Source: Porphyromonadaceae bacterium
GTDB lineage: Bacteria > Bacteroidota > Bacteroidia > Bacteroidales > Porphyromonadaceae
DNA length: 64,000 nucleotides
Direction of reading: 5' to 3'
Assembly (NCBI GenBank): GCA_030528555.1
Contig: JAUMYQ010000004.1
Span: 52,807-116,806, forward strand
A program made the translations under genes and the position numbers. Under the pieces are notes generated by a model. That model was given only the letters and a program-made list of their open reading frames with translations. It made no database searches and was not told where the DNA came from. Position 1 is the stretch's first letter. Each line of letters begins with the position of its first letter. Below, piece by piece: positions 9,357-63,830 of this stretch.

Positions 9357-9476
9357 CCTCCCGATTTACTCAAAAAATGTTCCCGAACTTTTGAAAAAAA
9401 CTTCCCGATCTTTTTGGAAAAAGTTCGGGAACTCCGAGAAAAAAGTTCGGGAACATTTTTTCGGGTATTCCCGAGC
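9357..9476. repeat. 22-bp-phased GTTCssGAAC array, copy A
   Basis: Six 10-bp units start at 9357, 9379, 9401, 9423, 9445 and 9467, exactly 22 bp apart. Three are perfect (GTTCCCGAAC at 9379, GTTCGGGAAC at 9423 and 9445). The linkers are runs of A or T. Units 9379 and 9445, with flanks, form a 20-bp perfect inverted repeat (9373-9392/9441-9460) around an inner 14-bp stem (9402-9415/9418-9431, one mismatch). It lies between the divergent Cys-rich gene and mdh. Confidence 0.9.
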
Positions 9477-9554
9477 ATTTTTTTCGGGCAAGAAAAGGGA
9501 TGTTTTGAGGTGCCTCGAAAGAGTTCAATAGGGTGGAGATTGTGGATAAATAGT

Positions 9555-9562
9555 TACATTTG
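9555..9562 (+). promoter_or_regulatory. -7 box upstream of mdh
   Basis: TACATTTG matches TAnnTTTG and is 80 bp before the mdh ATG. A good -33 TTTG is not visible at 19-21 nt; the array copy A ends 78 bp upstream. Confidence 0.45.
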
Positions 9563-9641
9563 TCTGGGTGCTTACATCGAGGGATGTAAGTGTTGGATAT
9601 AGAACTTAGTATTATCAACAATTATCAAACTGACAAAGGCT

Positions 9642-10643
9642 ATGAGTTTTCTATCTCAAGACAAGCTGACCATCATCGGGGCTGGTGGTATGATTGGCTC
9701 GAATATGGCACAGACGGCTGCCATGATGCGCCTAACTCCAAACATCTGTCTCTACGACCCCTTCTTACAAGGGCTCGAGGGCGTGGCAGAAGAAATCCGT
9801 CACTGTGGCTTTGAAGGCCTGCGCTTGACCTTTACCGACAGCATCAAGGAGGCTCTCACTGGAGCGAAGTATATCGTCTCTTCGGGAGGAGCTCCACGCA
9901 AAGAGGGCATGACGCGCGAAGACCTGCTCAAAGGCAACTGCGAGATTGCCGCTCAGCTTGGTAAGGATATCAAGACGTACTGCCCTGATGTCAAGCATGT
10001 AGTCATTATCTTTAACCCTGCAGATATTACAGGGCTTGTAACTCTTATCCACTCTGGCCTGAAGCCAAGCCAGCTCACCACGCTTGCTGCCCTCGACTCT
10101 ACGCGCTTGCAGAGCGAGCTGGCCAAGCATTTTGGCTTACAGCAGAGCGAGGTAGTAGGAGCTCGTACCTATGGAGGGCACGGTGAAGCCATGGCTGTCT
10201 TTGCCAGCACGGCTCAGATCGCTGGTAAGCCTTTAACCCAGCTTATTGGTTCGGATAAGCTAACCACTCAAGACTGGGAGGCACTCAAAAAGCGTGTAAC
10301 GCAGGGAGGTGCAAACATCATCAAGCTACGTGGTCGCTCTTCGTTCCAGAGCCCTGCCTATGTATCTATCGAGATGATAGCTGCTGCCATGGGAACTAAA
10401 CCTTTTGTTTGGCCTGCAGGCTGCTATGTAGATCTTCCTGGGCTAGACAAAGTGGTCATGGGTATGGAGACAGTCATCGACAAAGATGGTGTGCGCTACA
10501 GCAACGAAATTAAGGGGACAGACGATGAGCGTGAAGCACTCAAGGTAAGCTATCAGCATTTGGTGAAGATGCGTGACGAAGTGATCGGCATGGGTGTTAT
10601 CCCAGCCGTGGAAGACTGGAAGATGGTCAATCCCAACCTCTAG
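9642..10643 (+). CDS. mdh: Malate dehydrogenase
   Basis: NAD-dependent interconversion of malate and oxaloacetate, central to the reductive branch leading to fumarate and succinate in Bacteroidales. The Rossmann loop is GAGGMIGSN near residue 12, NPADITG near 126 is the NAD/substrate loop, and GGHGEAM near 178 holds the catalytic His. At 333 aa it is the form typical of the order. It is followed 85 bp later by an unrelated nuclease gene. Its own promoter is the TACATTTG at 9555. Confidence 0.92.
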   Translation: MSFLSQDKLTIIGAGGMIGSNMAQTAAMMRLTPNICLYDPFLQGLEGVAEEIRHCGFEGLRLTFTDSIKEALTGAKYIVSSGGAPRKEGMTREDLLKGNCEIAAQLGKDIKTYCPDVKHVVIIFNPADITGLVTLIHSGLKPSQLTTLAALDSTRLQSELAKHFGLQQSEVVGARTYGGHGEAMAVFASTAQIAGKPLTQLIGSDKLTTQDWEALKKRVTQGGANIIKLRGRSSFQSPAYVSIEMIAAAMGTKPFVWPAGCYVDLPGLDKVVMGMETVIDKDGVRYSNEIKGTDDEREALKVSYQHLVKMRDEVIGMGVIPAVEDWKMVNPNL

Positions 10644-10728
10644 CCTTCAACCACCATCATTGCCCAGCGATAGAGCTTACCGCCCTTTGGTATGCTCTGT
10701 TGCTGGGCTTGTTATTATCCACAGAGAG

Positions 10729-11808
10729 ATGAGAGCTATCGGTATCGTACTGATCTTTCTCGGAGCAATCTACAGAACCATGGCTACGGACAATCCTAAG
10801 AGACAGGAGCTAAGTGTACTGTGCTACAATGTGGAGAACCTATTCGATACGATAGATGACCCACGCACAGACGACAACGCCTTTTTACCTAGAGGGGCGT
10901 ATCACTGGACGCCACGTCGCTATTGGCGTAAACTCGGGCGCATTGCTGAGGTGATCTCACGCTCGGGGCTCTATCGCTTTCCTGCACTTGTGGGCCTAGT
11001 GGAGGTAGAAAATGAGGCTGTCATTAAGGATTTAGTTACCCATACACCTCTGAGTAAGGCAGGCTACCGCTATGTGGTGACGAGTGGTCGCGACCCTCGT
11101 GGGATAGATGTAGCTCTACTGTATCGCCCAGATGCATTCTCTCTGGAGAGCTGGCGAGAGTATAATGTACGTTTGGAGCGAGAGCCCGAGAGACATGTCC
11201 GTCATCTACTGCTCGCCACGGGGCGTGTAGGGAGTGAGGCTCTACATATATTGCTCTGCCACCTGCCCTCTAGGCGAGAGGGGGCTAGGCGCACCGAGCC
11301 ATACAGGCGCGCTGTAGCTAGACGGATGCGACAGATTTGCGATAGCCTCTATACGGCAGACCCATTGGCACATATTCTAGTGATGGGCGACTTCAACGGC
11401 CTGCCACATGACGCGGCCACGGCTCTAGACCTCGCTGCCGCCCTTGAGCTACCCAATGACCTCTCGGACCTCTCGGCTAGAGAACTCCGGCTCTACAACC
11501 TCTCGGCCACATCGCCCGAAGGGACACCCCCAGGGAGCTACTACTATCGCGGACGGTGGGAGCAAATCGATCAGTTCATCGTCTCGGAGAGCTTGATTTT
11601 AGGGCCAGGCAAACTGCGCTATGTCTTAGGCTCGGCACGCAACTATGCTCCGCCCTACCTAGGGCACCGCCCGAAGTGTGCAGGCTACCTCGCTCCGTGG
11701 TCTACCTACCGAGGCACGCACTACACAGGAGGGTATAGCGACCACTATCCCATTATCCTGAACCTCCAGCAGAGTACCTCAGAGCTCTCCGAGGAAGAGC
11801 GAGAGTAA
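10729..11808 (+). CDS. Endonuclease/exonuclease/phosphatase family protein
   Basis: 359-aa member of the Mg-dependent EEP fold (DNase I/exonuclease III type). CYNVENLFDT near residue 30 is the first metal-site motif, GDFNGLP near 220 the second, and SDHYPI near 338 the catalytic Asp-His. A hydrophobic N-terminus (IGIVLIFLGAIYRTMA) suggests export or membrane anchoring. Substrate is not predictable; homologues are annotated as secreted nucleases or phosphatases. The open frame extends upstream into mdh, but the ATG at 10729 is preferred because it starts at the hydrophobic leader. Confidence 0.8.
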   Translation: MRAIGIVLIFLGAIYRTMATDNPKRQELSVLCYNVENLFDTIDDPRTDDNAFLPRGAYHWTPRRYWRKLGRIAEVISRSGLYRFPALVGLVEVENEAVIKDLVTHTPLSKAGYRYVVTSGRDPRGIDVALLYRPDAFSLESWREYNVRLEREPERHVRHLLLATGRVGSEALHILLCHLPSRREGARRTEPYRRAVARRMRQICDSLYTADPLAHILVMGDFNGLPHDAATALDLAAALELPNDLSDLSARELRLYNLSATSPEGTPPGSYYYRGRWEQIDQFIVSESLILGPGKLRYVLGSARNYAPPYLGHRPKCAGYLAPWSTYRGTHYTGGYSDHYPIILNLQQSTSELSEEERE

Positions 11809-12183
11809 GCCCTCAGAAGCGTTTAACCAAGAATTCCCGAGCTTCTTTGAGAAACCCCATTAGATCTTTTCTTGAAAACCAGAGTTTTTGAAGAAGAGAC
11901 AGCTCTCTCCAGATAACAGATGATGGCTCTTCGCTAAGGAGTAGCGAGGCGAGGAGTTGCCTTAAAGAGCAGAAAGATTGGAGGAGAATGAATAATTGCT
12001 ATCTTTGCTACGGAGACCTATCCTGATTAGGAGGGGATTCATAAGTCTGAAAAGGTGTGTTCCGAAGTATTCGAATTGGCCTACATATCGGTCTTGATAT
12101 GGTCAGTTTGGTGTTTCGGACACTTCTTTTTTTCGGATCTGTGTGACAGGTTAATTTGTTTAATAACAAGAAATATCGTAATC
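11809..12183. promoter_or_regulatory. Intergenic region with greA promoter
   Basis: No gene is seen. TTG at 11978-11980, 19 nt, then TATCTTTG at 12000-12007 is a good Bacteroidota promoter, giving a leader of about 170 nt for greA. ATTCCCGAGC at 11833-11842 equals one unit of the dispersed array family, but no second in-phase unit is present. It may be a relic. Confidence 0.55.
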
Positions 12184-12657
12184 ATGGGCTATAACTATAT
12201 GACCCAATCGGGCTACGACAAGCTCGTAGCGGAGATCAACCATCTAGAGTCGGTGGAGCGACCAGAGATATCTCGGCAAATAGCTGAGGCACGAGACAAG
12301 GGAGACCTCTCGGAAAATGCCGAGTACGATGCCGCCAAAGAGGCGCAAGGGCTGCTCGAGGCCAAGATCTCCAAGCTCAAGGAGCTGCTCTCAACAGCTC
12401 GTATCCTCGATGAAAGCAAGATATCAGCCGATGAGGTGCAAATCCTCACCACGGTACGTCTGATGAATCACACGAGTGGCAAAGAAGTAACCTATACACT
12501 CGTACCCAATGCCGAGGCCAACCTCAAGGAAAAAAAGATCTCCGTAGAGACACCTATCGCCCAAGGTCTACTCGGGCACAAGGTAGGTGAGGTCGTGGAG
12601 GTACAGACCCCTGGAGGGCTCTTAAGCCTCGAGATACTTGACATCTCTCTAGGTTAA
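12184..12657 (+). CDS. greA: Transcription elongation factor GreA
   Basis: Binds RNA polymerase in the secondary channel and stimulates cleavage of backtracked RNA. The N-terminal coiled coil carries the signature RDKGDLSENAEYDAAKEAQG near residues 40-59, with the acidic tip (DLSENAEY). The C-terminal FKBP-like part runs from about 80. The start at 12184 gives 157 aa, the family norm; an upstream in-frame start would add 43 residues with no family match. It is 5 bp before the HIT gene, so the two are probably co-transcribed. Confidence 0.96.
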   Translation: MGYNYMTQSGYDKLVAEINHLESVERPEISRQIAEARDKGDLSENAEYDAAKEAQGLLEAKISKLKELLSTARILDESKISADEVQILTTVRLMNHTSGKEVTYTLVPNAEANLKEKKISVETPIAQGLLGHKVGEVVEVQTPGGLLSLEILDISLG

Positions 12658-12662
12658 GCCGT

Positions 12663-13067
12663 ATGTCAACACTATTTAGCCGGATAGTGCAGGGCGAAAT
12701 ATCTTCACACCGTATTGCGGAGAACGAGGAGTTTTACGCCTTTCTGGATATTAATCCCACTCAGATGGGACATACGCTCGTTATTCCTAAGAGAGAGGAA
12801 GACTATTTTTTTGATCTCTCCGCCGACGAACTAGGCAGATTGATGGCTTTCGCCAAGGCCGTAGCAGGGGCTATTCGTCAGGCTATGGGGTGCCAAAGAG
12901 TTGGTCTCTCTGTCATGGGGTTGGAAGTGCCTCATGCTCATCTACACCTCATCCCTATCAATGGTATGAGAGATATGTACCCTGAGAACAAGACTTCGCC
13001 CTCGGCCGATGAGTTGGCCAAGGTGGCGGAGCGCATTCGAGCTTTCGTGCCCAAAGAGCTTCAATAA
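12663..13067 (+). CDS. HIT family protein
   Basis: 134-aa histidine-triad nucleotide-binding protein. The triad VPHAHLHLIPI near residue 95 has His-x-His-x-His, the active site for hydrolysis of adenosine phosphoramidates or dinucleotides. DINPTQMGHTLVIPK near 30 is the second family motif. It lies between greA and ugd, 14 bp before ugd. The precise substrate cannot be told from the sequence. Confidence 0.9.
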   Translation: MSTLFSRIVQGEISSHRIAENEEFYAFLDINPTQMGHTLVIPKREEDYFFDLSADELGRLMAFAKAVAGAIRQAMGCQRVGLSVMGLEVPHAHLHLIPINGMRDMYPENKTSPSADELAKVAERIRAFVPKELQ

Positions 13068-13081
13068 AATCAAACTGAACC

Positions 13082-14392: not shown

Positions 14393-14396
14393 GTCT

Positions 14397-15002
14397 ATGG
14401 TGCAAATATTAGTCATCGACTGCTTCGACTCATTTGTCTACAATTTGGTGCAGATCCTCGACGAATCGGGGCTCTGCACTTATGATATTGTCCCAGCCGA
14501 TGCCATCGAACTCTCCGATCTATCTACTTATGATGCCCTATTACTCTCGCCAGGACCTGGCGTACCTACGGAACTACCACTACTCATGCAGGTACTTCAG
14601 CTCTGTGAGCGGACGCACCACATCCTGGGCATCTGCCTCGGTCATCAGGCCATTGGGCTACACTTTGGAGCACAGCTGAGGCAGCTTGTGCGTCCGCTAC
14701 ATGGACATACAGATATACTCAGGCACGGGGGAGAAGGGCTCTTGCGAGGGCTCAACTCTCTGACCTCGATAGGTCGCTATCACAGCTGGGTTATAGATGA
14801 ACATACCCTCCCATCTTGCCTACAAGTGTTGGGAGTGTCCGACCTCTCGCCAACGGAGATCATGGCCATTCGTCATAGAGAGTTGCCCATCTATGGCCTA
14901 CAGTTTCATCCTGAGAGTCTGATGACTGAGGCTGGCAACCGATATCTGCTGAGCTTCCTTAGCGAGGTCACAGCTGCTCGCAGGGCAAGTCGCGTAACCT
15001 AG
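14397..15002 (+). CDS. Glutamine amidotransferase of PabA/TrpG type
   Basis: 201-aa class I glutaminase that delivers ammonia to chorismate-using synthases (anthranilate or aminodeoxychorismate). It begins with VIDCFDSFVYNLVQ near residue 5. The nucleophile Cys is in LGICLGHQAIG near 80, and the His-Glu pair is in LQFHPES near 171. No TrpE/PabB partner is in the window, so pabA and trpG cannot be separated. The start at 14397 is chosen over an upstream in-frame start inside ugd because the conserved N-terminus begins there. Confidence 0.88.
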   Translation: MVQILVIDCFDSFVYNLVQILDESGLCTYDIVPADAIELSDLSTYDALLLSPGPGVPTELPLLMQVLQLCERTHHILGICLGHQAIGLHFGAQLRQLVRPLHGHTDILRHGGEGLLRGLNSLTSIGRYHSWVIDEHTLPSCLQVLGVSDLSPTEIMAIRHRELPIYGLQFHPESLMTEAGNRYLLSFLSEVTAARRASRVT

Positions 15003-15027
15003 CCCTACCGATATTTTAATAAATCCG

Positions 15028-15933: not shown

Positions 15934-15935
15934 AC

Positions 15936-18240: not shown

Positions 18241-18449
18241 AATATTATCGTTTTGAGTGAATAAGTTGGTTAGGTTCTGGTAAATGACGGCAGCTTACTC
18301 CGCTGAGATAGCACCTCAGGCCCACTCTGAGCACTGCACAAATATAATTAATTCTGTGCAAATAGAGATTTTTTTCTATTATTTATCCCGAACTTTCAGA
18401 TGACTTCATAAGATGCTCAGAAATAGAGCACTCCAATCTCTCATAAGAC
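18241..18449. other. Leader region of the PEPCK-like gene
   Basis: About 210 bp of A/T-rich DNA between the gene start and array copy B. No gene or clear -7/-33 pair was seen. Confidence 0.3.
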
Positions 18450-18569
18450 TATCGGGAATATCCCGAAAAACCTTCGGGAACTTTTGAAAAAAACTTCCCG
18501 AACTTTTTGGAAAAAGTTCGGGAACTCCGAAAAAAAAGTTCGGGAACATTTTTCGAAAAGATGGGGTAT
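18450..18569. repeat. 22-bp-phased GTTCssGAAC array, copy B
   Basis: Units start at 18450, 18472, 18494, 18516, 18538 and 18560, all 22 bp apart. Two are GTTCGGGAAC (18516 and 18538); the outer units are TATCGGGAAT and GATGGGGTAT. It has the same orientation as copies A and D. It is part of a 231-bp sequence repeated inverted at 24707-24937. Confidence 0.9.
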
Positions 18570-18680
18570 GTTTCTAACGATATAATAATAAGCGAGTTAG
18601 AAGACTTTCGAGACAGAGGAGGATTAACGTCATAGATGCTCCCAATTTTGATGAAGTTGCCTTGCCCCATGAGGGGACTG
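18450..18680 (+). repeat. 231-bp inverted repeat, left arm
   Basis: This arm comprises array copy B plus 111 bp of non-array sequence (18570-18680). It aligns without gaps to the reverse complement of 24707-24937. I count five differences in the 111-bp part; the array part is similar except for its outermost unit. The arm ends exactly at the stop codon of the LtaS-type gene (18681). Confidence 0.9.
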
Positions 18681-20639
18681 CTAATCTGAGACTACCAGGC
18701 GATTGTGGCGCATGCGCTCACTGTACTGCTGAAGGTAAGCCTTCAGGAAGCGAAGCATCTCGGTGATTTCGGGCAAGGGTTCGTTCTTAATATTCTTAGT
18801 AAGTCGTGGGTCGTCCTTAAGGTTGTAGACGGCCAGCACATTCGCCCCATCGTACTGCATCAGCAGGTCGCCCATAACCAGCTGATAGCCCGAGTTAATC
18901 GCACTTACTGCCCAATGCTTGCCTTCCGTCATAAACATGCTTTTGCCGAAAGCGACCATCGGACGCTCCAGCCCCATGAGATCGAGGAGGGTAGGCATGA
19001 GGTCGGCCTGCTGGACGGCCTCCAAGCTCCGCCCAACCAACTCCCCCTGGGGGTCGAAGAAAATCATCGGGATGCGGTAAATACCTCGAACATCGGCATA
19101 CTCGGGCAACGCCCCTGCCACAGCATGGTCGGCCGTGATGACGAAAAGGGTATTCATATACCAAGGTTGCGTGCGAGCATAGTCGAAGAACCTCTTGATG
19201 GCATAGTCCGTATAGCGGATGCACTTATGGATAGGCATTGGCCCTTCTAGAAAGACATCTCGATACTTGCTCGGAATATTGAAAGGGTGATGAGACGTAG
19301 TGGTAAATTCGGTAACAAAGAAGGGCTCTTTGAGGGTACTAATCGTTCGTCCGAAGAACTGCAAAAATGGTTCGTCCCAGATGCCCCAACGGCCATCGTG
19401 CTCCCGATCATCGCCAAACTCATTCTTTCCATAATAATGCTGAAAACCAAGCTGCTTGGCCATCGCATCGAAGCCCATCAAGCCATTGTCGGCGTTGTGA
19501 AAGTATGCCGAGGTATAGCCCTCCTCCTCGCTGAGGACGCGGACGATGGAGCCAAGCTCATTGCCCGAGTAGAGCGAGACGACGAAAGGTACCCCAGGCT
19601 TCGGAAGAGAGGCCAGCAGGTTGGGCATTGCGTCAATAGACTTGAGCCCCCCAGCATAGGCGTTCTCAAAGCAATAGCTGTGCTGTATCAAAGAATCGAT
19701 GAAGGGTGTATAGCCCTCGTAGCCCTCTATATCGCGGTTCAACGCCCCTACCCACTCGCGTGCCATGCTCTCCCAGATAATCAGCACTACGTTACGGCCT
19801 TGCAATGTGGCTGCATGTGGCGAGGGATGCTCTCCTGCTCGATAGATGGGGTCGAAGATCTGGCGCGCCTCATCGTTACTCATATAGCGATACTCGGGTA
19901 GAGGGGCTTTGCCGATGAAGCGGATGAGAACGAAAGGCGTATTGAGTACTAACTCTCTCTGCTGCACCTTATCCACAAAAGCCACGGCATTAGCAGCGGC
20001 AATAGGCCGAGTAGCAGCTGTAAATCCACCACGCATGGCAGCCACGGTTAGCCAAGCGATGAGAACCATCGAGAGGATAGAGGCAAGATAGTACCTCTTA
20101 GTCGCCTCAGTCCTTAGGAGAGATACGACCCTAATTCGCCGATAGAGCCACACCCATAGAGCAATACAAATTAATCCAAAGAGCGTTACTCCCCAGTAGC
20201 TCAAGAAGAAACTGAGGAAATTAAAGGGATTTTCATTGCTAAACTCCTCTAAGACATCGAGCGTCGTACGCCTACCCGTAAAGCGAACGTAGACTACATC
20301 CGCGAGGTTGAAGACGAACATCGGGACATTGCTCAGCCAATATACCCAGCCGATAGCACGCTGGTAACCCACACTATGGCGAGCCCTCATCGGCAAGATA
20401 TGCAGCAGGATGACCAAAGCATTGGTATAGGCAATGGCCGATGCATCAAAAAGGAGACCGCCACGCAGGGCATTAGCCAATTGCCCCCAGGTCTCCATCC
20501 CGAGGAGATCACGGTTATAAACGAAAAATGCACAGCGCACTAAGCTGTACATTAGGAACACGAGTAAAAGACGTAGGGCAAGGACAGCAATGAGCTTGCC
20601 ATTGCCTGAGCAACGCAATTGGGCAAAAAGATTGTTCAT
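18681..20639 (-). CDS. LtaS-type membrane sulfatase/phosphotransferase
   Basis: 652-aa membrane protein of the alkaline-phosphatase/sulfatase superfamily. Four or five hydrophobic segments fill the first 215 residues, followed by an extracytoplasmic domain. VLIIWESMAREW near 290 is the first metal-binding region, YAGGLKSIDAMPN near 330 holds the likely Ser/Thr nucleophile, and ITADHAV near 520 holds the Asp-His metal ligands. Relatives are lipoteichoic acid synthases and phosphoglycerol or phosphoethanolamine transferases. Here an envelope glycan or lipid is the likely acceptor. The ATG at 20639 overlaps the upstream GT2 stop as ATGA, favouring it over a start at 20702. Confidence 0.85.
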   Translation of the reverse strand: MNNLFAQLRCSGNGKLIAVLALRLLLVFLMYSLVRCAFFVYNRDLLGMETWGQLANALRGGLLFDASAIAYTNALVILLHILPMRARHSVGYQRAIGWVYWLSNVPMFVFNLADVVYVRFTGRRTTLDVLEEFSNENPFNFLSFFLSYWGVTLFGLICIALWVWLYRRIRVVSLLRTEATKRYYLASILSMVLIAWLTVAAMRGGFTAATRPIAAANAVAFVDKVQQRELVLNTPFVLIRFIGKAPLPEYRYMSNDEARQIFDPIYRAGEHPSPHAATLQGRNVVLIIWESMAREWVGALNRDIEGYEGYTPFIDSLIQHSYCFENAYAGGLKSIDAMPNLLASLPKPGVPFVVSLYSGNELGSIVRVLSEEEGYTSAYFHNADNGLMGFDAMAKQLGFQHYYGKNEFGDDREHDGRWGIWDEPFLQFFGRTISTLKEPFFVTEFTTTSHHPFNIPSKYRDVFLEGPMPIHKCIRYTDYAIKRFFDYARTQPWYMNTLFVITADHAVAGALPEYADVRGIYRIPMIFFDPQGELVGRSLEAVQQADLMPTLLDLMGLERPMVAFGKSMFMTEGKHWAVSAINSGYQLVMGDLLMQYDGANVLAVYNLKDDPRLTKNIKNEPLPEITEMLRFLKAYLQQYSERMRHNRLVVSD

Positions 20640-24581: not shown

Positions 24582-24706
24582 GCCAGCCTCAGTTCGGATA
24601 CTTTCTGCCTCATTGAGTGAGCGTCTAATAGGCTTAAAGTAGATGGTTGGGCTCTTATCTTCGCAGGGGCTGACCTCGCCTGACCTGCTAGCTAGCCCTG
24701 TCGCAT

Positions 24707-24937
24707 CAGCCCCCTCATGGGGCAAGGCAACTTCATCAAAATCGGGAGCATCTATGACGTTAATCCTCCTCTGTCTCGAAACTCTTCTAACTCACTTATT
24801 CTTATATCGTTAGAAACATACCCCATCTTTTCGAAAAATGTTCCCCAAGTTTTTTTTCGGAGTTCCCGATCTTTTTGGAAAAAGTTCGGGAAGTTTTTTT
24901 CAAAAGTTCCCGAAGATTTTTTCGGCCAATCGGGAAT
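24707..24937 (-). repeat. 231-bp inverted repeat, right arm
   Basis: Reverse complement of 18450-18680 without gaps. It holds array copy C plus the same 111-bp non-array sequence (24707-24817). Together the arms flank 6,026 bp containing the LtaS-type gene, GT2, cysS and ychF. Confidence 0.9.
24818..24937. repeat. 22-bp-phased GTTCssGAAC array, copy C
   Basis: Units at 24818, 24840, 24862, 24884, 24906 and 24928, all 22 bp apart: ATACCCCATC, GTTCCCCAAG, GTTCCCGATC, GTTCGGGAAG, GTTCCCGAAG, AATCGGGAAT. It is in reverse orientation relative to copies A, B and D. It lies between divergent ychF and GT2. Confidence 0.9.
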
Positions 24938-25078
24938 AAATACAAATATCTAAAAAACAATCAGTTATAAAAAACCTAAGGTGGCAAGCTAAAAACCAGG
25001 TCAAGCAACCTAACTCGCGTACGAAAATTGCCTCGTGCCTCCCTTGGAGTCAGCAACTAGGGGTTGGAGAGGATTTAG

Positions 25079-34471: not shown

Positions 34472-34640
34472 TGTTTCAGAAATCAGATTTGTCAAACAGA
34501 GCAAATATAGACATTCTCCGCCTACCCTGCCTCGGGGTCAGAAGCCAGATAACTGCACGGAAATCTAGCCCCAAGTCCACTACCCTCTGGCATTTCACAC
34601 ACACACTACACAACTATCTTGTTACTAACAAATTAAACCT

Positions 34641-34760
34641 ACCCCCTTTCTTTCCAAAAAATCTTCGGGAACTTTTGAAAAAAACTTCCCGATCTTTTTG
34701 GAAAAAGTTCGGGAACTCCGAGAAAAAAGTTCGGGAACATTTTTTTGAATGTTCCCGAAG
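34641..34760. repeat. 22-bp-phased GTTCssGAAC array, copy D
   Basis: Units at 34663 (CTTCGGGAAC), 34685 (CTTCCCGATC), 34707 and 34729 (both GTTCGGGAAC), and 34751 (GTTCCCGAAG), all 22 bp apart. A degenerate unit is in register at 34641. Same orientation as A and B, between the start of the thioredoxin-fold gene and the end of the META gene. Confidence 0.9.
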
Positions 34761-34826
34761 ACTTTTTAGACCATATAAAAGGCCTATTCAGATAAGGTAA
34801 TCCACCGATTTAAGTTTGTCCTATCC

Positions 34827-44369: not shown

Positions 44370-44599
44370 CTATATCTGATTAAAAGTACTATTAGGCTCT
44401 AAAGTTAATAAAAGCAACGAAACAGCACTGCCTTATTACTAAGATTTAGGACAGTAGTCACTAAATCTTCTTCATGGGCTCTCGCTACCTCTCGGCTCGA
44501 AACAGCCAAAACAAACACAAACAGCAATCAACTGTATTTCAGTTAGATAAATGAAATCCGGAGCAAATCTCACATATGCCCGAGATGTGCTCCAAAAAT
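44370..44599. other. Leader region of the antiporter gene
   Basis: About 230 bp between the gene start and array copy E. No gene and no convincing -33/-7 pair was found. Confidence 0.3.
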
Positions 44600-44719
44600 G
44601 CTCGGGAATACCCCAAAAAATGTTCCCGAACTTTTTTCTCGGAGTTCCCGAACTTTTTCTAAAAAGATCGGGAAGTTTTTTTCAAAAGTTCCCGAAGATT
44701 TTTTTGACTAATCAGGAAC
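44600..44719. repeat. 22-bp-phased GTTCssGAAC array, copy E
   Basis: Units at 44600 (GCTCGGGAAT), 44622 and 44644 (both GTTCCCGAAC), 44666 (GATCGGGAAG), 44688 (GTTCCCGAAG) and 44710 (AATCAGGAAC). All spacings are 22 bp. Reverse orientation, like C and F. Confidence 0.9.
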
Positions 44720-44791
44720 ATCTGTAATTGACTAAGAATAAACACATTGCAAAACCACCTCAAGAAGCTACCAATGGCTTAACCTGCGATT

Positions 44792-52427: not shown

Positions 52428-53096
52428 CTAGAAGCGGAAGCCAAGCGTAGTATAGAAATTCTTGTTCTTACCATCGCTGGCTTGATCCTTACCAAACTGG
52501 TTTACGAAACCGAACTCAGTACCGAGGCGGAGATAGAACTTATTGTACTCAATAGCAGCAGAAATACCGAGACCTGCATCGAAACGCTTAGCGTCCTTAT
52601 TCAAATCATAGAGGTTCTGCTCCCCGAGCTTAGCCGCAAGGGCATAGCTGAAGTATGGACCAACCTCTACAGAAGCTGCAAAAGCACTAGCAAATGCCGC
52701 ACGCATGCCGAAGTTTACAGGCACGCTAATGTTGTGCGTTGTAACCTGACCCGAGGCAAGCCCCTTGATAGCATCAATGACCTCTACACCAGGAAAACCG
52801 CCGAAAGCAGAAGCCAGATCTCCAAGAGCATTGCTTACAGCCTGAGAAGTAGTCTTATAGCCTCCCATTTTGTAGGTAACACCTGGAGCAAGGTACACGC
52901 TCACCGCGCCAGGGGCTGTGAGACCAACCTCTACGGCCGCACCAGCACGCAGACCAGTCTTAGTACTCGCACTCTGCTTCTCAAAAGACATGTTACTAAA
53001 AGCAGCACCAACTTCTACACGAGGTGTCACAGACTGAGCACTTACACCAAGCACACCTGCTGCCAATACTAGGGCAGTTACAATCATTTTCTTCAT
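52428..53096 (-). CDS. Outer-membrane beta-barrel protein
   Basis: 222-aa protein with a signal peptide (MKKMIVTALVLAAGVLGVSAQ) and alternating hydrophobic strands of a small barrel. It ends TTLGFRF, the C-terminal aromatic signal for outer-membrane insertion. Function is unknown; such proteins are often abundant porin-like or adhesin proteins in the order. TATCTTTG on the minus strand (53149-53142) is the likely -7 box. Array copy F lies 190 bp upstream of the start. Confidence 0.8.
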   Translation of the reverse strand: MKKMIVTALVLAAGVLGVSAQSVTPRVEVGAAFSNMSFEKQSASTKTGLRAGAAVEVGLTAPGAVSVYLAPGVTYKMGGYKTTSQAVSNALGDLASAFGGFPGVEVIDAIKGLASGQVTTHNISVPVNFGMRAAFASAFAASVEVGPYFSYALAAKLGEQNLYDLNKDAKRFDAGLGISAAIEYNKFYLRLGTEFGFVNQFGKDQASDGKNKNFYTTLGFRF

Positions 53097-53285
53097 ATTT
53101 TTTCTATTTAGCAGATAAACCTATAATTAGTTTAACAGAAGCAAAGATATTCTTTTTTAAGAAACAACCTAAAACTCTCCCTAGACACATTGGGCAAACG
53201 TATCAAAATCGAGCTCATCTTTCGGTAAAATCTATCTCCACCTCAAAAATCAGATAATCACCTTATCCTGAAATAATTAGACATA

Positions 53286-53405
53286 CCCCCCCATTTTTGC
53301 GCAAAATGTTCCCGAACTTTTTTCTCAGAGTTCCCGAACTTTTTGGAAAAAGATCGGGAAGTTTTTTCCAAAAGTTCCCGAAGATTTTTTGGATAAATCG
53401 GGATA
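53286..53405. repeat. 22-bp-phased GTTCssGAAC array, copy F
   Basis: Units at 53308 and 53330 (both GTTCCCGAAC), 53352 (GATCGGGAAG), 53374 (GTTCCCGAAG) and 53396 (AATCGGGATA), with a C7-bearing degenerate unit in register at 53286. All spacings are 22 bp. Reverse orientation. Confidence 0.9.
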
Positions 53406-53500
53406 CATTATAACTACCTCATAACCAATAAATTTTAAAAGAAGACAGTCTAAACAAAAGAGAGATATAGTCGGCCCAAACCCTAATAGGGTATCTTACT

Positions 53501-56920: not shown

Positions 56921-57392
56921 CTTTGTGTTACTCTGTACATATCCAACAATGGATTGCTGACATTTTGTCACAAAGATACATAATTATCCGTCCCAAAGCC
57001 CGTGGCTCAGATACCAATAACCATGAGTCAGTTTCGCCTCCCTCTCTCGCTCTTCCCCATAAATACATCACGATAGGGACCTGTCTCTCCTTTTCATCTC
57101 TGGAAATAGTTCAGCGTGCATTCTCGTGTTTTCAGAAACTCTCCAGGGGCAGATTGCTGAATATTTGAGTATAGTATCCATAGCCACGGATGATTTTGTA
57201 AAAAACTAGAACCTCCTATTGATGATACACCCTTAAATACATAGCTTTGTGGAGCTACTACTCGATAGATATGTAAACTTCTCCTCCACGGATTACGTAA
57301 ATACGACATTGATTGGGCAGACAGATTACAAACTACGAGAACGATGGGCAAGACTTAGACCAGTCTACAGGTCTGTTTTATAAACTAACGTT
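56921..57392. other. Divergent regulatory region between the sigma-54 activator and korA
   Basis: No gene is convincing. It holds the activator's -7 box at 56971-56978 (minus) and the kor promoter at 57219-57249. After the latter there is a 143-nt leader with no clear riboswitch-like structure. No GG-N10-GC sigma-54 site was recognised by eye. Confidence 0.45.
57219..57249 (+). promoter_or_regulatory. Promoter of korAB
   Basis: TTG at 57219-57221, exactly 20 nt, then TAGCTTTG at 57242-57249. Confidence 0.7.
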
Positions 57393-59249: not shown

Positions 59250-59253
59250 AGCG

Positions 59254-60276
59254 ATGGATACAAATAACTGCCCCAAGGCCTACGAGGCCAAGGACTTCAA
59301 AAGTGAACAATATGTGCGTTGGTGCCCTGGCTGTGGCGACCACGCTGTCCTAGCCGTCCTACACAAAGCCATGGCCGAGGTAGGTATCGAGCCCCACCGC
59401 ACAGCCGTGGTCTCAGGTATTGGCTGCTCTTCGCGCCTGCCCTACTATATGAATACCTACGGATTTCACACCATTCATGGGCGAGCAGCAGCTATCGCTA
59501 CTGGGGTCAAGACGGCCAACCCTGGATTGAGCGTCTGGATGATATCTGGCGATGGCGACAGCCTAGCTATCGGGGGTAACCACTTCATCCACGCTATCAG
59601 ACGAAATGTCGACATCAACATTATCCTTTTTAACAATAGAATTTACGGCCTGACCAAGGGGCAATACTCCCCCACCAGCGACCGAGGTTTCGTATCCAAA
59701 AGCTCACCTTATGGCACAGTCGAGGACCCTTTCATCCCTGCCGAGCTATGCCTGGGGGCACGAGGTCGGTTCTTCGCCCGCGCCATTGATGTTGATATGA
59801 AGACCCTACAAGACTGTATGGTACAGAGCTCCAAGCATCAGGGAGCGTCCGTCCTAGAGGTGCTGGTCAACTGTGTCATCTTCAATGATGGTATCCACAA
59901 GAGCTACGCCATGAGGGATGTGCGGGACGACCGCACTATCACCTTACGGCATGGCGAAAAAATGATATTTGGTAAGGAAAAGAACCGAGGTATCGTCCTC
60001 GAGGGTCTCAAGCTACGAGCCGTAACCATCGGTGAGGATGGCTACACCCTAGACGACATCCTCACCCACGATGCCCATGAGGAGGACCCAACACTACACA
60101 ATATGCTCGCGATGATGAGAAACGAGTTGCCCATCGCCCTAGGGGTTATCCGCGATGTTCCTTCCGTGGCATACGATTGGGCGGTTCATCACCAAATAGC
60201 CGAGGTGCGAAAACAGAAGCCTCAGCGAACGTTCAAGGATTTGCTCCTATCAGACGCTTACTGGGAGGTCAAATAA
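59254..60276 (+). CDS. korB: 2-oxoacid:ferredoxin oxidoreductase subunit beta
   Basis: 340-aa thiamine diphosphate subunit. WCPGCGDHAVLAVLHKA near residue 24 begins the cofactor region. SGIGCSSRLPYYMNTYGFHT near 54 and SGDGDSLAIGGNHFIHA near 92 with FNNRIYGLTKGQYSPT near 120 make the TPP/Mg site. No [4Fe-4S] Cys set beyond the few conserved Cys is seen, as in KorB. The GT4 gene follows after 10 bp. 2-oxoglutarate is more likely than pyruvate because the two-subunit form is used. Confidence 0.93.
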   Translation: MDTNNCPKAYEAKDFKSEQYVRWCPGCGDHAVLAVLHKAMAEVGIEPHRTAVVSGIGCSSRLPYYMNTYGFHTIHGRAAAIATGVKTANPGLSVWMISGDGDSLAIGGNHFIHAIRRNVDINIILFNNRIYGLTKGQYSPTSDRGFVSKSSPYGTVEDPFIPAELCLGARGRFFARAIDVDMKTLQDCMVQSSKHQGASVLEVLVNCVIFNDGIHKSYAMRDVRDDRTITLRHGEKMIFGKEKNRGIVLEGLKLRAVTIGEDGYTLDDILTHDAHEEDPTLHNMLAMMRNELPIALGVIRDVPSVAYDWAVHHQIAEVRKQKPQRTFKDLLLSDAYWEVK

Positions 60277-60286
60277 GTCGCTTGGC

Positions 60287-61516
60287 ATGGTCGTCTATAT
60301 CATCTGTGACCTCTATCCTCCAGCATGGGCACCTCGGGTGGCGTATCTGACGCAGCACCTAAAGGCATACGGCTGGCAGGCAATAGTTTTCTGCGAGGAG
60401 GTGAGAAGTCATCAATTATTTGACGACTTCTCACCTCCTTGTCCCGTCTATAGCATAAACCTCAAGCCTAGATGGATGCCCTCCGCCCTGATGACCACCC
60501 TAGAACTGCTCGCCGAGTGGAAGGACCGAAGGATAGCCAAGGCAATTGAGCATATCATCGAGAAGGAAAACCTCTCACCGCCAGATGTGATACTCGCCCT
60601 ATCGTACCGTAAGTTTCCCTTCCGAGCAGGGGCTCATCTGGCTAGCAAATGGGGCGTATCGTGGATAGCGGACTGCCGTGACATCGTTGAGCAATACAGC
60701 CGTGGAGACTTTCTCCCTCGTCCCCTCAAACTTTTTGGCATGAGGTTCTCCAAGGTTGAGCGATGGATCGGGGCAAGATTTATCCGACAGCGCAATCTAG
60801 CCATAGCCTCGGCCCATACTGTTTGCACTGTATCTCAATGGCACCAAGAGACCCTCAAGACTATTCATCCCAATGTGCAGACTATTTATAATGGCTATGA
60901 TGCTAGCCTGTTCCAACCACGGAACCCTCAGCCCACATCTCGGTTTCGTATCGTCTACACGGGAAGGCTACTAAGCCTTGAGATGCGCAATCCACGCCTA
61001 CTTCTGGAGGTGCTTAAGAGCGAGCGACTACAACACTTACCCATCGACCTTATCTTTTACACAGACGATTACTCGGCCAGCCTAATACGCTCTCTTTGGA
61101 CGGATGGCGAGGGTTACCCACAGCTAAAAACTCTCCCCATGGTCTCCTCACGACATGTGCCCGATCTCCTAGCCAAGGCCAGCCTAATACTTCTCTTGGG
61201 CAATGAAGAGAGAGCAGATGGCCCTCATGGCATGATCTCCACCAAGCTCTTCGAAGCGATGGCGATGCACCGCCCCCTTGTCCTACTACCCGATGCCACT
61301 AGTGAAGCAGCGCAGCTCGTCCGCCAGAGCGGTCTCGGCATAGCTACCAATTCCCCCTCTGAGCTGGAAGACTACCTACTCAATCTCTTCTCCCAATGGC
61401 TAGAGGGAGGTACAACCCATGCTCCTAGACCCAACGCACAACTTATAAAGCTATACACACGAGAACGGCAAGTGGGAGAATTCGCTGTCCTACTCTCTGA
61501 GCTACTTCATCCTTAA
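60287..61516 (+). CDS. Glycosyltransferase, GT4-like (GT-B fold)
   Basis: 409-aa protein. The N-terminal domain starts VVYIICDLYPPAWAPRVAYL, the acceptor side of GT-B enzymes. RFRIVYTGRLLS near residue 220 begins the donor domain, and STKLFEAMAMHRPLVLL near 325 holds the E-x7-E type donor-sugar region. Probably acts on a surface polysaccharide or lipid. It is 10 bp behind korB, so it may be read through from it. The functional link is unclear. Confidence 0.82.
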   Translation: MVVYIICDLYPPAWAPRVAYLTQHLKAYGWQAIVFCEEVRSHQLFDDFSPPCPVYSINLKPRWMPSALMTTLELLAEWKDRRIAKAIEHIIEKENLSPPDVILALSYRKFPFRAGAHLASKWGVSWIADCRDIVEQYSRGDFLPRPLKLFGMRFSKVERWIGARFIRQRNLAIASAHTVCTVSQWHQETLKTIHPNVQTIYNGYDASLFQPRNPQPTSRFRIVYTGRLLSLEMRNPRLLLEVLKSERLQHLPIDLIFYTDDYSASLIRSLWTDGEGYPQLKTLPMVSSRHVPDLLAKASLILLLGNEERADGPHGMISTKLFEAMAMHRPLVLLPDATSEAAQLVRQSGLGIATNSPSELEDYLLNLFSQWLEGGTTHAPRPNAQLIKLYTRERQVGEFAVLLSELLHP

Positions 61517-61611
61517 CTTTACAGGTACGAGAAGAGGACAAGTAGCCTCTCGCCTCCCTTTGATATAGTCAGGAGCCCCTGTAGTACAAGAACTAAAATG
61601 ATAAAATCAAG

Positions 61612-61646
61612 TTGGCAGCGTTAGACTTAATATCCAACGCTGCCAA
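61612..61646. terminator. Hairpin between converging genes
   Basis: An 11-bp perfect stem, 61612-61622 with 61636-61646, with a 13-nt loop in the gap between the GT4 gene and the 535-aa gene. It may end both. Confidence 0.6.
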
Positions 61647-61708
61647 ATACTCCTTACTCACCTCTCGCTAGACAAAGGCTAAACGAAAAGCAAAGGTCCT
61701 TTAAATGC

Positions 61709-63316
61709 TTACTTCACTGGGGTAGGCTTGCTGAGTGAAATAGGAGAGAATGCAGGCTTGGCGCTGCCTGAGTGGGGACGATTGATCCAGTAGGTCTGAT
61801 AGCTCTCATCCAATGGTGTACGCTCTTTGAGCCATGTTGGGTAGTAGATCTGCAGCTCACCCATAGATGTCTCATAAGCTCCTCGATCGGCCGTTCTCAG
61901 GCCAAGAGTGTGCATAGCCCAACCACTAGAAGCCTGCCAATCGTCCGCCCAGTCCGTCGCACTATAGCGATGGTTGCGGTAAGGAGGAATGAAGGGGAAG
62001 TTCACCCCATCAGAACGGCGTAGACTGTACGTTGCCCCGAGGCTACGCAACTTGGCCTGATGCTCGGCAAAGGTGCTCGCCATGGCGAGGTGCTCCGAAC
62101 CAATAAGAGCAGTAGCATCAATAACCTGCCACTTGCTACCATACCTACGCAGTAGGGCCCAACCATCAGTAGCCGATATTTGAAGCACGTGAGAGGAGGT
62201 ATACGCCACACCGCGCAGGGCATCGGCCTGGCCAAAGCGTTGGGTAGGACCCGAGGTCAGACGTGCCAAACGATCTCTCAGCAGCAACCACCAGGCAGGT
62301 TTAGATGCCTCGCCCACCGTTAACATTAACTCTCGGTAGCTATCCGAAGCCAAGATACAGGTCTGCTCGGGGAGGAGGGGCTTCTCTTCCTCCTGGCTCG
62401 CTGCCCATAGGTCGGTGTACCACTTCTGACCATTGAATGTGCCACGATTGACCGTATAGCTACGCACACTCGTAGGCTGCCCGATGAAGACCTGGTCACG
62501 TACGATGCTCTTGAGCTCGAGTAGGCCTCCCCCAGCGATACAGCCCTCAAGGCTCTCACTCGTTGAACCATCAGAGAGACGATAGGCATATTTACTACCA
62601 GAGGGAGTTAGACGTACCAGAGCATATTGGTTGAGGTCTAGAGGCCTGGTCGTAGGGTTATAGAGCTCCACAAGAGCATAGTTGCGACCGTCCTCCGAAT
62701 GGTAGAGTTGCTCTGTAAGCATAAGATCTGTAGAGAGTAGGCTGCGGATGTGGTGTGTACGCCCCAGACGTGCGCCATCGAAGGTTTGGTTCGTCTGGTG
62801 CAACACGAGCATCGGCTGCACGCCAGAGGACTTCTCCTCCACGAACTGAGATTGTAGTCTGCCATAGTAGCGTGCACTGTCATCCGAATAGCGTACAAAG
62901 GCTGGTCGGTAAGCTATCATCTTGGACCGGATAAGCTCCTCTAACTCCGCTGTTGGTTCACCCTGCTGTTCCTTAATATAACGCTGGTGCTCAAGGGCAC
63001 GCAGCTCCTTGCGATAGTCATTGAGCTTGCTCACTACGGCACTACCGATCTTGGCACGAGGGTCAAAGCCCTCTAGCTGCGAATACGTGGCAGGATATAT
63101 CCCCACCCAGAGGTAGGTAAAGGGCTTAGTTGGAGCCTGCTTGCGTGGCATCGTCCAGAAGACAAGAGACCGACGACCCATATAACCACGCCCCGTGAGC
63201 CAAAAACGCCATTGGCCAGCATCGGAGTGCGACCCTCGATCGAGCCGCTGTGCCGTAGCACTTGATCCAGCCATGAGGCTAAGGCACAAGGCCACAACAA
63301 TGGTTCGTAATCTCAT
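61709..63316 (-). CDS. Secreted 535-aa protein with possible lamin-tail-like domain
   Basis: Signal peptide MRLRTIVVALCLSLMAG and AQ at about residue 23. No catalytic motif is recognised. NYALVELYNPTTRPLDLNQY near residue 204 resembles the start of lamin-tail (LTD) domains, which adopt an Ig-like fold in bacterial secreted proteins. A helical Glu/Arg-rich stretch lies near 95-130. The C-terminus is not a typical type IX secretion CTD as far as I can see. It stands alone; array copy G lies 417 bp upstream of its start. Confidence 0.65.
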   Translation of the reverse strand: MRLRTIVVALCLSLMAGSSATAQRLDRGSHSDAGQWRFWLTGRGYMGRRSLVFWTMPRKQAPTKPFTYLWVGIYPATYSQLEGFDPRAKIGSAVVSKLNDYRKELRALEHQRYIKEQQGEPTAELEELIRSKMIAYRPAFVRYSDDSARYYGRLQSQFVEEKSSGVQPMLVLHQTNQTFDGARLGRTHHIRSLLSTDLMLTEQLYHSEDGRNYALVELYNPTTRPLDLNQYALVRLTPSGSKYAYRLSDGSTSESLEGCIAGGGLLELKSIVRDQVFIGQPTSVRSYTVNRGTFNGQKWYTDLWAASQEEEKPLLPEQTCILASDSYRELMLTVGEASKPAWWLLLRDRLARLTSGPTQRFGQADALRGVAYTSSHVLQISATDGWALLRRYGSKWQVIDATALIGSEHLAMASTFAEHQAKLRSLGATYSLRRSDGVNFPFIPPYRNHRYSATDWADDWQASSGWAMHTLGLRTADRGAYETSMGELQIYYPTWLKERTPLDESYQTYWINRPHSGSAKPAFSPISLSKPTPVK

Positions 63317-63732
63317 TTTGTACTTATTTATATAGTTAATCGTATCCTTGGCCCTCTCAGCTTGTTACCGTCATCGGCTCGGGAACTTACACTTGAGGCG
63401 GTAGATAGCCTAGTCTAAGTACATTCCGATTATGAAAGGCGAGATGCGAGGTTAGCTAGAATTCCCATAAAACAGGGAATTTTTTAAAATTTTACAGATT
63501 GATCCCCATTTATTTTATTATGTAAACAAGAAAATCTTCGCTCAGTTGAGGATTTTTGCCCCTAGAATGACCCAATTCTTATGCTTCAAAGCCTAGATGA
63601 TCTAGCATTTAATCTGACCATGAAGCCTAGTCGGATCTATCTCTTTATCTTTAAAAATATGTGCTAAGATCGCCCCCTCTCCAAAGGCTCATGTGCAGTC
63701 TCTAAATCCTCCCTCAAGAACCTCGAAAAAAT
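63317..63732. other. Long leader region of the 535-aa gene
   Basis: About 415 bp, very A/T rich in the middle (63478-63545). No gene, RNA or consensus promoter was found by eye. Confidence 0.3.
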
Positions 63733-63830
63733 GCTCCCGATCTTTTGAAAAAAACTTCGGGAACATTTTAGAAAAAGTTCGGGAAGATTTTTTTGAAAGT
63801 TCCCGAACTTTTTTCTCAAAAATGGGGTAC
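63733..63830. repeat. 22-bp-phased GTTCssGAAC array, copy G (variant order)
   Basis: Units at 63733 (GCTCCCGATC), 63755 (CTTCGGGAAC), 63777 (GTTCGGGAAG), 63799 (GTTCCCGAAC) and 63821 (AATGGGGTAC), all 22 bp apart. The order of GG- and CC-centred units differs from the other copies, while the period is unchanged. Confidence 0.88.

What the first reader, a model, noticed from the sequence alone, without database searches (positions are those of the whole stretch)
9357..63830. Dispersed family of DNA elements built from GTTCssGAAC dyads at an exact 22-bp period
Seven intergenic elements contain five or six copies of a 10-bp dyad (arms GTTC and GAAC around GG or CC). Every one of the roughly 30 recognisable unit-to-unit steps is exactly 22 bp, even where the unit sequence or its GG/CC polarity differs. 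The linkers are 12-bp A/T tracts. A period of about two helical turns with A-tracts puts all dyads on nearly the same DNA face, as for an array bound cooperatively by a dimeric protein. I know of no described Bacteroidota element with this structure; Porphyromonas MITE/BrickBuilt repeats are described differently.
Basis: partly seen in the sequence, partly recalled or inferred. Interest (0 to 1): 0.9.

Follow-up and report, generated by a model that had tools for sequence, protein, structure and literature searches.

The report
Evenly spaced 22-bp-phased DNA site arrays
Porphyromonas-type bacteria carry short non-coding DNA arrays, built from repeated motifs 22 base pairs apart and mostly set several thousand to about twenty thousand base pairs from one another; the motif differs between lineages while the 22-bp spacing recurs, which looks like an undescribed way of organising a bacterial chromosome, though its function is untested.

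Summary
All seven window elements exist; at up to 2 mismatches I find 31 units and 24 neighbour steps, all 22 bp. A profile finds over 100 copies in the 1.78-Mb draft genome. What recurs is the geometry, not the sequence: sampled contigs of seven same-genus genomes and one of another genus of the family carry lag-22 arrays built from different, often palindromic units. A ninth (G031) was unclear. Four genomes of other families gave none in 60 kb each.

Arrays are non-coding (104 of 105) and under-dispersed: in seven genomes, 0 of 118 gaps are below 4 kb against 18.7 expected. In two genomes, unrelated families also avoid each other (modest statistics). I found no published or new terminal repeat in the flanks, no target duplication and no gene-strand relation.

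Best reading: phased arrays bound cooperatively by lineage-specific proteins, spaced as chromosome-organising or supercoil-insulating sites. Binder and function are unproven. Main rival: a selfish repeat that excludes neighbours. Eight paper searches on the topic found no description.

The parts
1..37 (.). right end of an eighth element, cut by the window edge (orientation unclear, both strands score alike)
   Evidence: C29:52672-52818 by profile, 52690-52843 by lag 22
9328..9484 (+). element E1; units at 9379, 9401, 9423, 9445, 9467, weak unit at 9357; upstream of a lactate/malate dehydrogenase-like gene (9642-10643)
18441..18575 (+). element E2; units at 18472, 18494, 18516, 18538, weak units at 18450 and 18560
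24812..24966 (-). element E3; units at 24840, 24862, 24884, 24906, weak units at 24818 and 24928; between divergent genes (YchF-like GTPase and a glycosyltransferase)
34615..34769 (+). element E4; units at 34663, 34685, 34707, 34729, 34751
44593..44746 (-). element E5; units at 44600, 44622, 44644, 44666, 44688, weak unit at 44710; between a Na/H exchanger gene and a BipA/TypA gene
53283..53434 (-). element E6; units at 53308, 53330, 53352, 53374, weak unit at 53396
63714..63858 (-). element E7 (most diverged); units at 63733, 63755, 63777, 63799, weak unit at 63821

Best explanation
Each element is an array of binding sites for a sequence-specific, probably dimeric, protein that binds neighbouring sites cooperatively. 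The sites lie 22 bp (2.1 helical turns) apart, on nearly one face of the DNA. In the three genomes counted (G000, G017, G020) about 100 or more such arrays stand at quasi-regular intervals in non-coding gaps; over seven genomes the smallest gaps are 4-15 kb and the means 9-23 kb. I propose that they act as chromosome-organising sites, most simply as topological insulators that divide the chromosome into supercoil domains of roughly 10-15 kb. The site sequence (and so the binder's specificity) differs between lineages, while the 22-bp geometry and the under-dispersed spacing recur. Shown: period, different units, palindromes in many arrays, non-coding place, spacing; family-independent exclusion with modest statistics. 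Inferred: a protein binder, cooperativity, concerted change of sites and binder, insulation.
For: 1) Period: in nine contig stretches of G000, G016, G012 and G027, threshold 40, lag 22 gives 105 arrays; control lags 14-35 give 0-0.33 per stretch on average, at most 4 (lag 23 in G016). G022 (4) and G025 (3) agree. G020 and G017 also have lag-22 arrays (6 and 8), but lag 21 is as frequent or more so (6 and 13), from 21-bp units inside the elements and a heptamer. 2) Of nine dyads counted, six have pair distances almost only at 22 and 44; TAAACRYGTTTA also has 21 (8 of 27), and the two G025 dyads have three pairs at 22 each. 3) Unit sequences differ: profile R1 hits 2 of 26 genomes of the genus, R2 hits 5 of 26. 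4) At an orthologous site G020 has CCACGTGG dyads while G002 has CTCC-GGAG-type dyads. 5) 104 of 105 arrays are non-coding. 6) Spacing: 0 of 118 gaps below 4 kb against 18.7 expected; Fisher p 5e-8 on gap CV in seven genomes. Whole chromosomes: G017 2 gaps below 4 kb vs 16.6, G020 2 vs 17.2; G000 0 of 87 vs 22.6. 7) Exclusion between families: G012 p 0.0065, G027 p 0.0036 on the minimum distance; one of eight long gaps examined holds an array of another family near its middle. 8) No relation to gene strand in G000: 19 same, 14 opposite. Precedent: LacI bound to operators forms a topological barrier (PMC4725879, abstract and introduction seen).
Against: No binder is known and no binding is shown. 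Copies within G000 share linkers and flanks, so they spread by copying, as a repeat would, and the core is itself an inverted repeat. A more sensitive dyad scan finds four G012 arrays within 6 kb (gaps 1.6-2.9 kb), and G017 has gaps of 749 and 3,180 bp, both between inverted copies. Some gaps are long (60-108 kb in the capped whole-genome lists; 61 kb in G016 and 39 kb in G000). Seven of the eight long gaps examined gave no array of another family (one of these seven held a degenerate array of the same family). Symmetry is weak in G016, G027 and G017. Three array positions differ between relatives whose shared blocks are 83-93% identical. G002 holds at least one full-scoring CCACGTGG-type copy beside the two altered ones that I read (167.2 bits), so turnover there is not complete. 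Cross-family tests are modest and the G027 non-F set was picked by hand. G031 shows one array in 100 kb, no better than two control lags.
Confidence: 0.42

Rival explanations
1. Selfish dispersed repeats (MITE-like or another small mobile element) whose spread is limited by target immunity: the copying enzyme, or a protein bound to the array, blocks insertion near an existing copy, so copies pack with a minimum distance. The phased sites are the enzyme's or immunity protein's binding array, as with the repeated sites at Tn7 and Mu ends (recalled).
For: Copies share sequence beyond the dyads, and the core is a quasi-palindrome. There is presence/absence between relatives; at one site about 0.35 kb with the array is extra in G017 while the flanks align up to heptamer repeats on both sides. 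The gap distribution looks like packing with an exclusion zone. One G025 array (240628) lies inside a repeat of about 670 bp with inverted ends.
Against: In 37 copies there is no inverted repeat between the flanks (best 8-mer identity 0.40, background 0.25) and no target duplication: at 5-9 bp no offset has four copies, at 4 bp the best of thousands of offsets has 4 of 37. At two other polymorphic sites the rest of the gap differs too. Exclusion also appears between families with no sequence in common. The 22-bp period recurs in unrelated sequences.
Confidence: 0.29
2. Binding sites of a nucleoid-occlusion or segregation factor (works like Noc/NBS or SlmA/SBS): many dispersed palindromic sites that mark the nucleoid.
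For: Similar count (NBS about 70, SBS 24-52; PMC4726725, passages seen) and palindromic sites.
Against: NBS and SBS are under-represented near the terminus, whereas here no large stretch is empty (G020 7-13 per 200 kb, G017 5-11 in full bins and 3 in the partial last bin; capped lists, terminus not located). The passages do not describe 22-bp-phased arrays.
Confidence: 0.12
3. Neutral repeats kept in step by gene conversion, with close pairs removed because recombination between them deletes or inverts genes.
For: Order breaks between G020 and G017 fall mostly at array-bearing gaps (read by eye). In G017 the two closest pairs are inverted (749 and 3,180 bp) while the closest direct pair is 5,478 bp apart, as expected if close direct pairs are lost.
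Against: Over all pairs direct and inverted gaps do not differ significantly (G017 p 0.11, G000 p 0.52), and in G000 the floor is the same (4,942 and 4,966 bp). The floor appears between non-homologous families too. It gives no reason for a 22-bp period in unrelated sequences.
Confidence: 0.11
4. Transcriptional or RNA elements (terminators, promoters, attenuators).
For: Arrays are enriched in divergent gaps over nine genomes pooled (37 of 124 vs 55 of 353, Fisher p 0.0009); hairpins can be drawn.
Against: The enrichment reverses in G027 (7 convergent, 1 divergent of 14). No strand relation to genes. Only 2 of 29 predicted pairs have any compensatory change, covariation term 0.02. No Rfam match to the elements.
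Confidence: 0.06

Closest known systems
BrickBuilt MITE of P. gingivalis (PMC4596501; abstract, section 5 and part 1 of section 7 read)
   Same: Dispersed, intergenic, tandem units of similar length, same genus
   Different: 23-nt contiguous direct repeats in variable number (1 to 22.8), with leader, tail and IS5-like inverted repeats in some copies, 19 copies in ATCC 33277; here fixed 4-6 unit order, 22-bp period, no such ends near the window copies, over 100 copies, under-dispersed. In G025 a 23-bp array (probably BrickBuilt, my inference) and three 22-bp arrays occur in the same 100 kb.
Noc (NBS) and SlmA (SBS) binding sites (PMC4726725, passages)
   Same: Tens of palindromic sites over the chromosome
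   Different: No empty terminus stretch seen here; phased arrays; site sequence differs between species of one genus
Operator arrays as topological barriers (LacI; PMC4725879, abstract and introduction)
   Same: Proposed way of working: bound operators that block supercoil diffusion
   Different: Those are the lac operators and engineered tandem copies; no natural genome-wide set is described in what I read
REP/BIME and ERIC repeats (recalled; REP and ERIC are mentioned in passages of PMC10969869)
   Same: Short palindromic intergenic repeats
   Different: No fixed 22-bp phase and no even spacing known to me
Iteron and Tn7/Mu end arrays (recalled)
   Same: Sites about 22 bp or two helical turns apart
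   Different: Single loci or transposon ends, not about 100 dispersed sites

Membership tests
BrickBuilt MITE | 23-nt tandem repeat without spacers | tested here: not met
   period 22, 24 of 24 steps; no lag-23 array in the five G000 contigs at threshold 46
BrickBuilt MITE | IS5-like terminal inverted repeats (GAGACC...) | tested here: not met
   none of three Porphyromonas TIR types within 500 bp of the seven elements at up to 2 mismatches
MITE in general | terminal inverted repeats | tested here: inconclusive
   none between the 200-bp flanks of 37 copies, but the core itself is a quasi-palindrome (71%)
MITE in general | target site duplication | tested here: not met
   no 4-9-bp duplication at a fixed offset in 37 copies; variable ends could hide one
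MITE in general | clean empty sites in relatives | tested here: inconclusive
   three polymorphic sites, G020 vs G017: one bounded by heptamer repeats, two where the rest of the gap differs too
Nucleoid-occlusion sites (Noc/SlmA type) | depletion near the terminus | tested here: not met
   no empty stretch in G020 or G017; terminus not located and lists capped
Nucleoid-occlusion sites (Noc/SlmA type) | bound by a ParB- or TetR-type factor acting on division | not testable with these tools
   no binder known
Topological insulator / chromosome organiser | array occupied in vivo and blocking supercoil or contact spread | not testable with these tools
   needs ChIP, psoralen mapping or Hi-C
Structured RNA element | compensatory base changes | tested here: not met
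   2 of 29 pairs, covariation term 0.02

The most novel reading that the evidence does not exclude
Porphyromonadaceae chromosomes are ruled by a family-wide system of about 100 or more phased nucleoprotein arrays at roughly 10-15-kb intervals. Its DNA code is replaced between lineages, by co-evolution of sites and binder, while its geometry (22-bp phase, spacing between arrays) is conserved: a new kind of bacterial chromosome architecture.
Probability: 0.33. Interest if true: 0.96.

Novelty: categorically new. Interest (0 to 1): 0.88.

Why it matters
Supercoil domains of about 10 kb have long been inferred in bacteria, but their borders are not known to be encoded (recalled). A natural, under-dispersed set of phased sites would make that directly testable. 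Different site sequences at one geometry would also be a striking case of co-evolution between a DNA-binding protein and about 100 sites. Even under the selfish-repeat reading, exclusion between unrelated families would be unusual. The arrays also lie at contig ends and at order breaks between relatives, so they matter for assembling and comparing these genomes.

Tried and rejected
RNA element: rejected for lack of covariation and no Rfam hit to the elements. Phage origin: one element (window 34600-34800) has no match in 50,697 phage records. Naming the organism by a 32-base pattern in genome contigs: 0 matches (the tool may leave out the window's own genome). Orthologous positions between G000, G016, G012 and G027: shared proteins have median identity of 44-52%, and 0 of 43 conserved adjacent gene pairs carry an array, so uninformative. 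Naive gene calls placed spurious ORFs in arrays, so a codon-usage caller replaced them. Deletion of close direct repeats as the cause of the floor: not supported in G000, partly compatible with G017. Terminus depletion: not seen. De novo terminal repeats in the flanks: none. Binder identification was not achieved. Paper searches on the topic found no description of 22-bp-phased arrays in Porphyromonas; two more searches were for precedents. Subscription papers are mostly not held, and reference 13 of the BrickBuilt paper (cited there for 22-, 23- and 41-nt tandem repeats in strain W83) was not read. On checking this report against the calls I lowered the best explanation from 0.45 to 0.42 and the novel case from 0.35 to 0.33, because G002 keeps a CCACGTGG-type copy, one polymorphic site is bounded by repeats, and the two closest G017 pairs are inverted.
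Full report
What is in the window. Exact GTTCSSGAAC occurs 12 times, against 0.12 expected. With at most 2 mismatches, seven clusters hold 31 units and all 24 steps between neighbours are 22 bp. Tandem Repeats Finder independently reports period 22 or 44 at the same seven places. Six of the seven elements, and most other copies, align as one asymmetric element in either orientation; E7 is more diverged. In an alignment of 37 copies (window E1-E6 among them) the core of about 110 bp is nearly invariant, and a left flank with a degenerate TAAT...CTTATAATTAGATGATTA...CCCGATT motif is partly conserved. Positions shared by the copies include linkers, so the copies descend from one another. The core is also a quasi-palindrome (71% symmetric). 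The period is not perfectly rigid: copy L004 has a 21-bp step, and 182 of 190 dyad pairs 19-24 bp apart in five contigs are at exactly 22.

The whole genome. The window lies in G000, a 1.78-Mb draft of 42 contigs. The dyad pair GTTCSSGAAC-12-GTTCSSGAAC occurs 43 times, against 0 for the reversed control pattern. Profile R1, built from 37 copies, lists 154 matches on both strands, from 150 scored of 566 candidates, and the list was cut off. Merged by hand this is 108 places on the 22 contigs with two or more, with more on other contigs. Many contigs begin or end inside an element, as expected if near-identical copies break the assembly.

Other species share the period, not the sequence. R1 hits 7 of 61 genomes searched; only G000 and G016 have many hits (47 and 45), the other five have one or two. 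I then ran a sequence-free test, counting matches at each lag in 66-base windows. In nine stretches of G000, G016, G012 and G027, threshold 40, lag 22 gives 105 arrays. Control lags 14-35 give 0 to 0.33 per stretch on average and at most 4, namely lag 23 in one G016 contig. G022 has 4 arrays at lag 22 and one at lag 37; G025 has 3 at lag 22 and one at lag 23. G020 has 6 at lag 22 but also 6 at lag 21 and 3 at lag 14; G017 has 8 at lag 22, 13 at lag 21 and 7 at lag 14. Their elements contain 21-bp TTCNTCCGAAG units between the CCACGTGG dyads, and a heptamer flanks many of them. G031 has one lag-22 array, no better than lags 15 and 18. Four genomes of other Bacteroidales families gave no lag-22 array in 60 kb each. 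That is a small control: at the densities (one per 10-33 kb, G031 aside) two to six would be expected per stretch. G012, G020, G022, G025 and G031 were chosen because they have one contig, not because of hits. The G016 and G027 stretches were chosen around hits, and G017 for synteny. By its recalled length G025 is P. gingivalis ATCC 33277, and G020 P. asaccharolytica DSM 20707; no tool named them.

The units. G000 GTTCSSGAAC; G016 CTCTCGGAAC; G020 and G017 CCACGTGG; G012 TGAGGGATATCCCTCA and AAGTTATATAACTT; G027 TAAACRYGTTTA, TTTTCGTACGTACGAAAA, CGTGCGCACG, GTACCTAATC, GCACTAAAGG and GGATTAGTAATTACC; G025 TTTCCACNNGTGGAAA, ATAGTATATACTAT and AACGTCTAGACGTT. Of nine dyads counted, six have pair distances up to 60 bp almost only at 22 and 44. 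TAAACRYGTTTA also gives 21 and 43 (8 each), and the two G025 dyads have only three pairs at 22 each. In G012 the dyad columns are more conserved than the linkers (identity 0.67 against 0.41 and 0.71 against 0.40), though unit order is still shared between arrays. A symmetry test against column shuffles is positive for 60 of 126 arrays: G000 33 of 55, G012 13 of 19, G020 4 of 6, G025 3 of 3, but G016 2 of 16, G027 2 of 14, G017 2 of 8, G022 1 of 4, G031 0 of 1. Palindromy is common, not universal.

Place. With a codon-usage gene caller, 104 of 105 arrays have less than 30% coding sequence; the exception (C16:2619) was dropped from later counts. Arrays are enriched in divergent gaps when nine genomes are pooled (37 of 124 array gaps against 55 of 353 other gaps of 200 bp or more, p 0.0009), but G027 shows the opposite (7 convergent, 1 divergent of 14). 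Element strand is unrelated to gene strand in G000 (19 same, 14 opposite).

Spacing. In seven genomes (lag-22 arrays at threshold 40, plus profile-only copies in G000 and dyad-defined copies in G020 and G017 added by hand), 0 of 118 gaps are below 4 kb. The expectation is 18.7 when the same number of arrays is placed at random in real intergenic gaps. The coefficient of variation is below the null mean in all seven (individual p 0.0008 to 0.05 in six, 0.30 in G022; Fisher p 5e-8). At threshold 38 it is 1 of 122 against 20.0. The G020 stretch is the most regular: eight arrays with gaps of 12.6 to 18.2 kb; one of them is degenerate and was first found by looking in the long gap, later by the profile as well. 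Whole-chromosome profile lists, each capped at 150 scored candidates, give 2 gaps below 4 kb against 16.6 in G017 (107 places) and 2 against 17.2 in G020 (102 places), under a uniform null. The G000 list gives 0 of 87 against 22.6 under an exponential; it includes one hand-added array of another family. Against this: a more sensitive dyad scan of G012 finds four arrays with gaps of 1.6-2.9 kb, G017 has neighbours 749 and 3,180 bp apart, and long gaps exist.

Exclusion across families. In G012, 17 arrays of one dyad and 7 of another are never within 4 kb (4.76 pairs expected under rotation; p 0.014 on the count, 0.0065 on the minimum). In G027, 10 arrays of one family and 6 of others (picked by hand) are never within 4 kb (2.39 expected; p 0.037 and 0.0036). 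Of eight long gaps examined, one (27 kb in G000:C12) holds three CACCCTATAATGGGTG-type dyads at 22 bp near its middle, one (G020) holds a degenerate array of its own family, and six gave nothing convincing. A shared spacing rule predicts such exclusion and family-specific target immunity does not, but the numbers are modest.

Turnover and mobility. Over 140 kb, G020 and G017 (shared blocks 83-93% identical) clearly share one array position, and three arrays are clearly in one of them only; the rest lie at order breaks or unaligned gaps. At one polymorphic site about 0.35 kb with the array is extra in G017 and the flanks align up to heptamer repeats on both sides; at the two others the rest of the gap differs too. 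In G000, 37 copies show no target duplication and no inverted repeat in the flanks. Order breaks between G020 and G017 fall mostly at array-bearing gaps, which I read by eye from the block list. At the site of G020 220254 the relative G002 has an array whose dyads are CTCC-GGAG-type and not CCACGTGG; a second G002 array is alike. The 22-bp steps there were counted by eye, since the automatic palindrome scan found only three strong sites in one and two in the other. G002 also has at least one full-scoring CCACGTGG-type copy (C68:19564, 167.2 bits), so both types coexist. R2, built from G017 and G020, gives 98-103 matches (both strands, capped at 101 scored candidates) in each of five of 26 genus members and none in the other 21. 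So families are clade-specific; that all copies change in concert is an inference from their uniformity within a genome.

Mechanism. A 22-bp step shared by unrelated sequences points to protein-protein contact between neighbours on one DNA face. Independence of gene strand, under-dispersed spacing and exclusion between families point to a chromosome-scale role. Bound operators can block supercoil diffusion (LacI; PMC4725879). I therefore favour chromosome-organising or insulating arrays, at 0.42. The next rival is a selfish repeat with exclusion (0.29). Nucleoid occlusion is less likely because the known sites avoid the terminus (PMC4726725) and no large empty stretch is seen here (terminus not located).

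Known things. BrickBuilt (PMC4596501) differs in period, ends, copy number and unit number. The long-read P. gingivalis paper (PMC5771137, passages) states that short repeats of 3-31 bp were not annotated. The passages I saw of the MITE review (PMC10969869) describe nothing like this. The searches on the topic found no description, in an open-access library only.

Verdict. Function remains to be tested.

Noticed in passing
window 8800-8911: A 42-bp tandem repeat (2.7 copies, 91% matches) lies inside ORF 8735-9115.
   Followed up: no
window 63923-63963: A run of 13 G (63923-63935) is followed 15 bases later by a run of 13 C (63951-63963), near the end of the window; possible slippage or phase-variable tract.
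   Followed up: no
window 18560-18690 and 24690-24840: Elements E2 and E3 share a longer right flank of about 100 bp in inverted orientation, replacing the usual fifth unit.
   Followed up: partly
G017 whole chromosome: Element orientation is clustered: 26 plus and 10 minus between 76 and 802 kb, 17 plus and 54 minus elsewhere (permutation p 0.002); possibly replichore polarity.
   Followed up: partly
G025:C1:240496-241168: A dispersed repeat of about 670 bp with inverted ends carries four TTTCCACNNGTGGAAA-type dyads at 22 bp; part of it (query 740-963) matches many genomes of the genus, mostly at 70-79%.
   Followed up: partly
G020 and G017 intergenic gaps (e.g. L155): Runs of a heptamer such as CTCTAAT/CTCTAAC lie beside arrays; they probably give part of the lag-14 and lag-21 signals.
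   Followed up: no
G027:C5:122910-123368: About 20 similar 22-bp units (GGATTAGTAATTACCGTTTCAT) in one place: an ordinary-looking minisatellite with the same period.
   Followed up: no
G000 contig ends (C3, C4, C10, C11, C14, C19, C20, C21, C23, C25, C26, C33, C40, C41): Many contigs start or stop inside an element, so the draft assembly is broken at these repeats.
   Followed up: no
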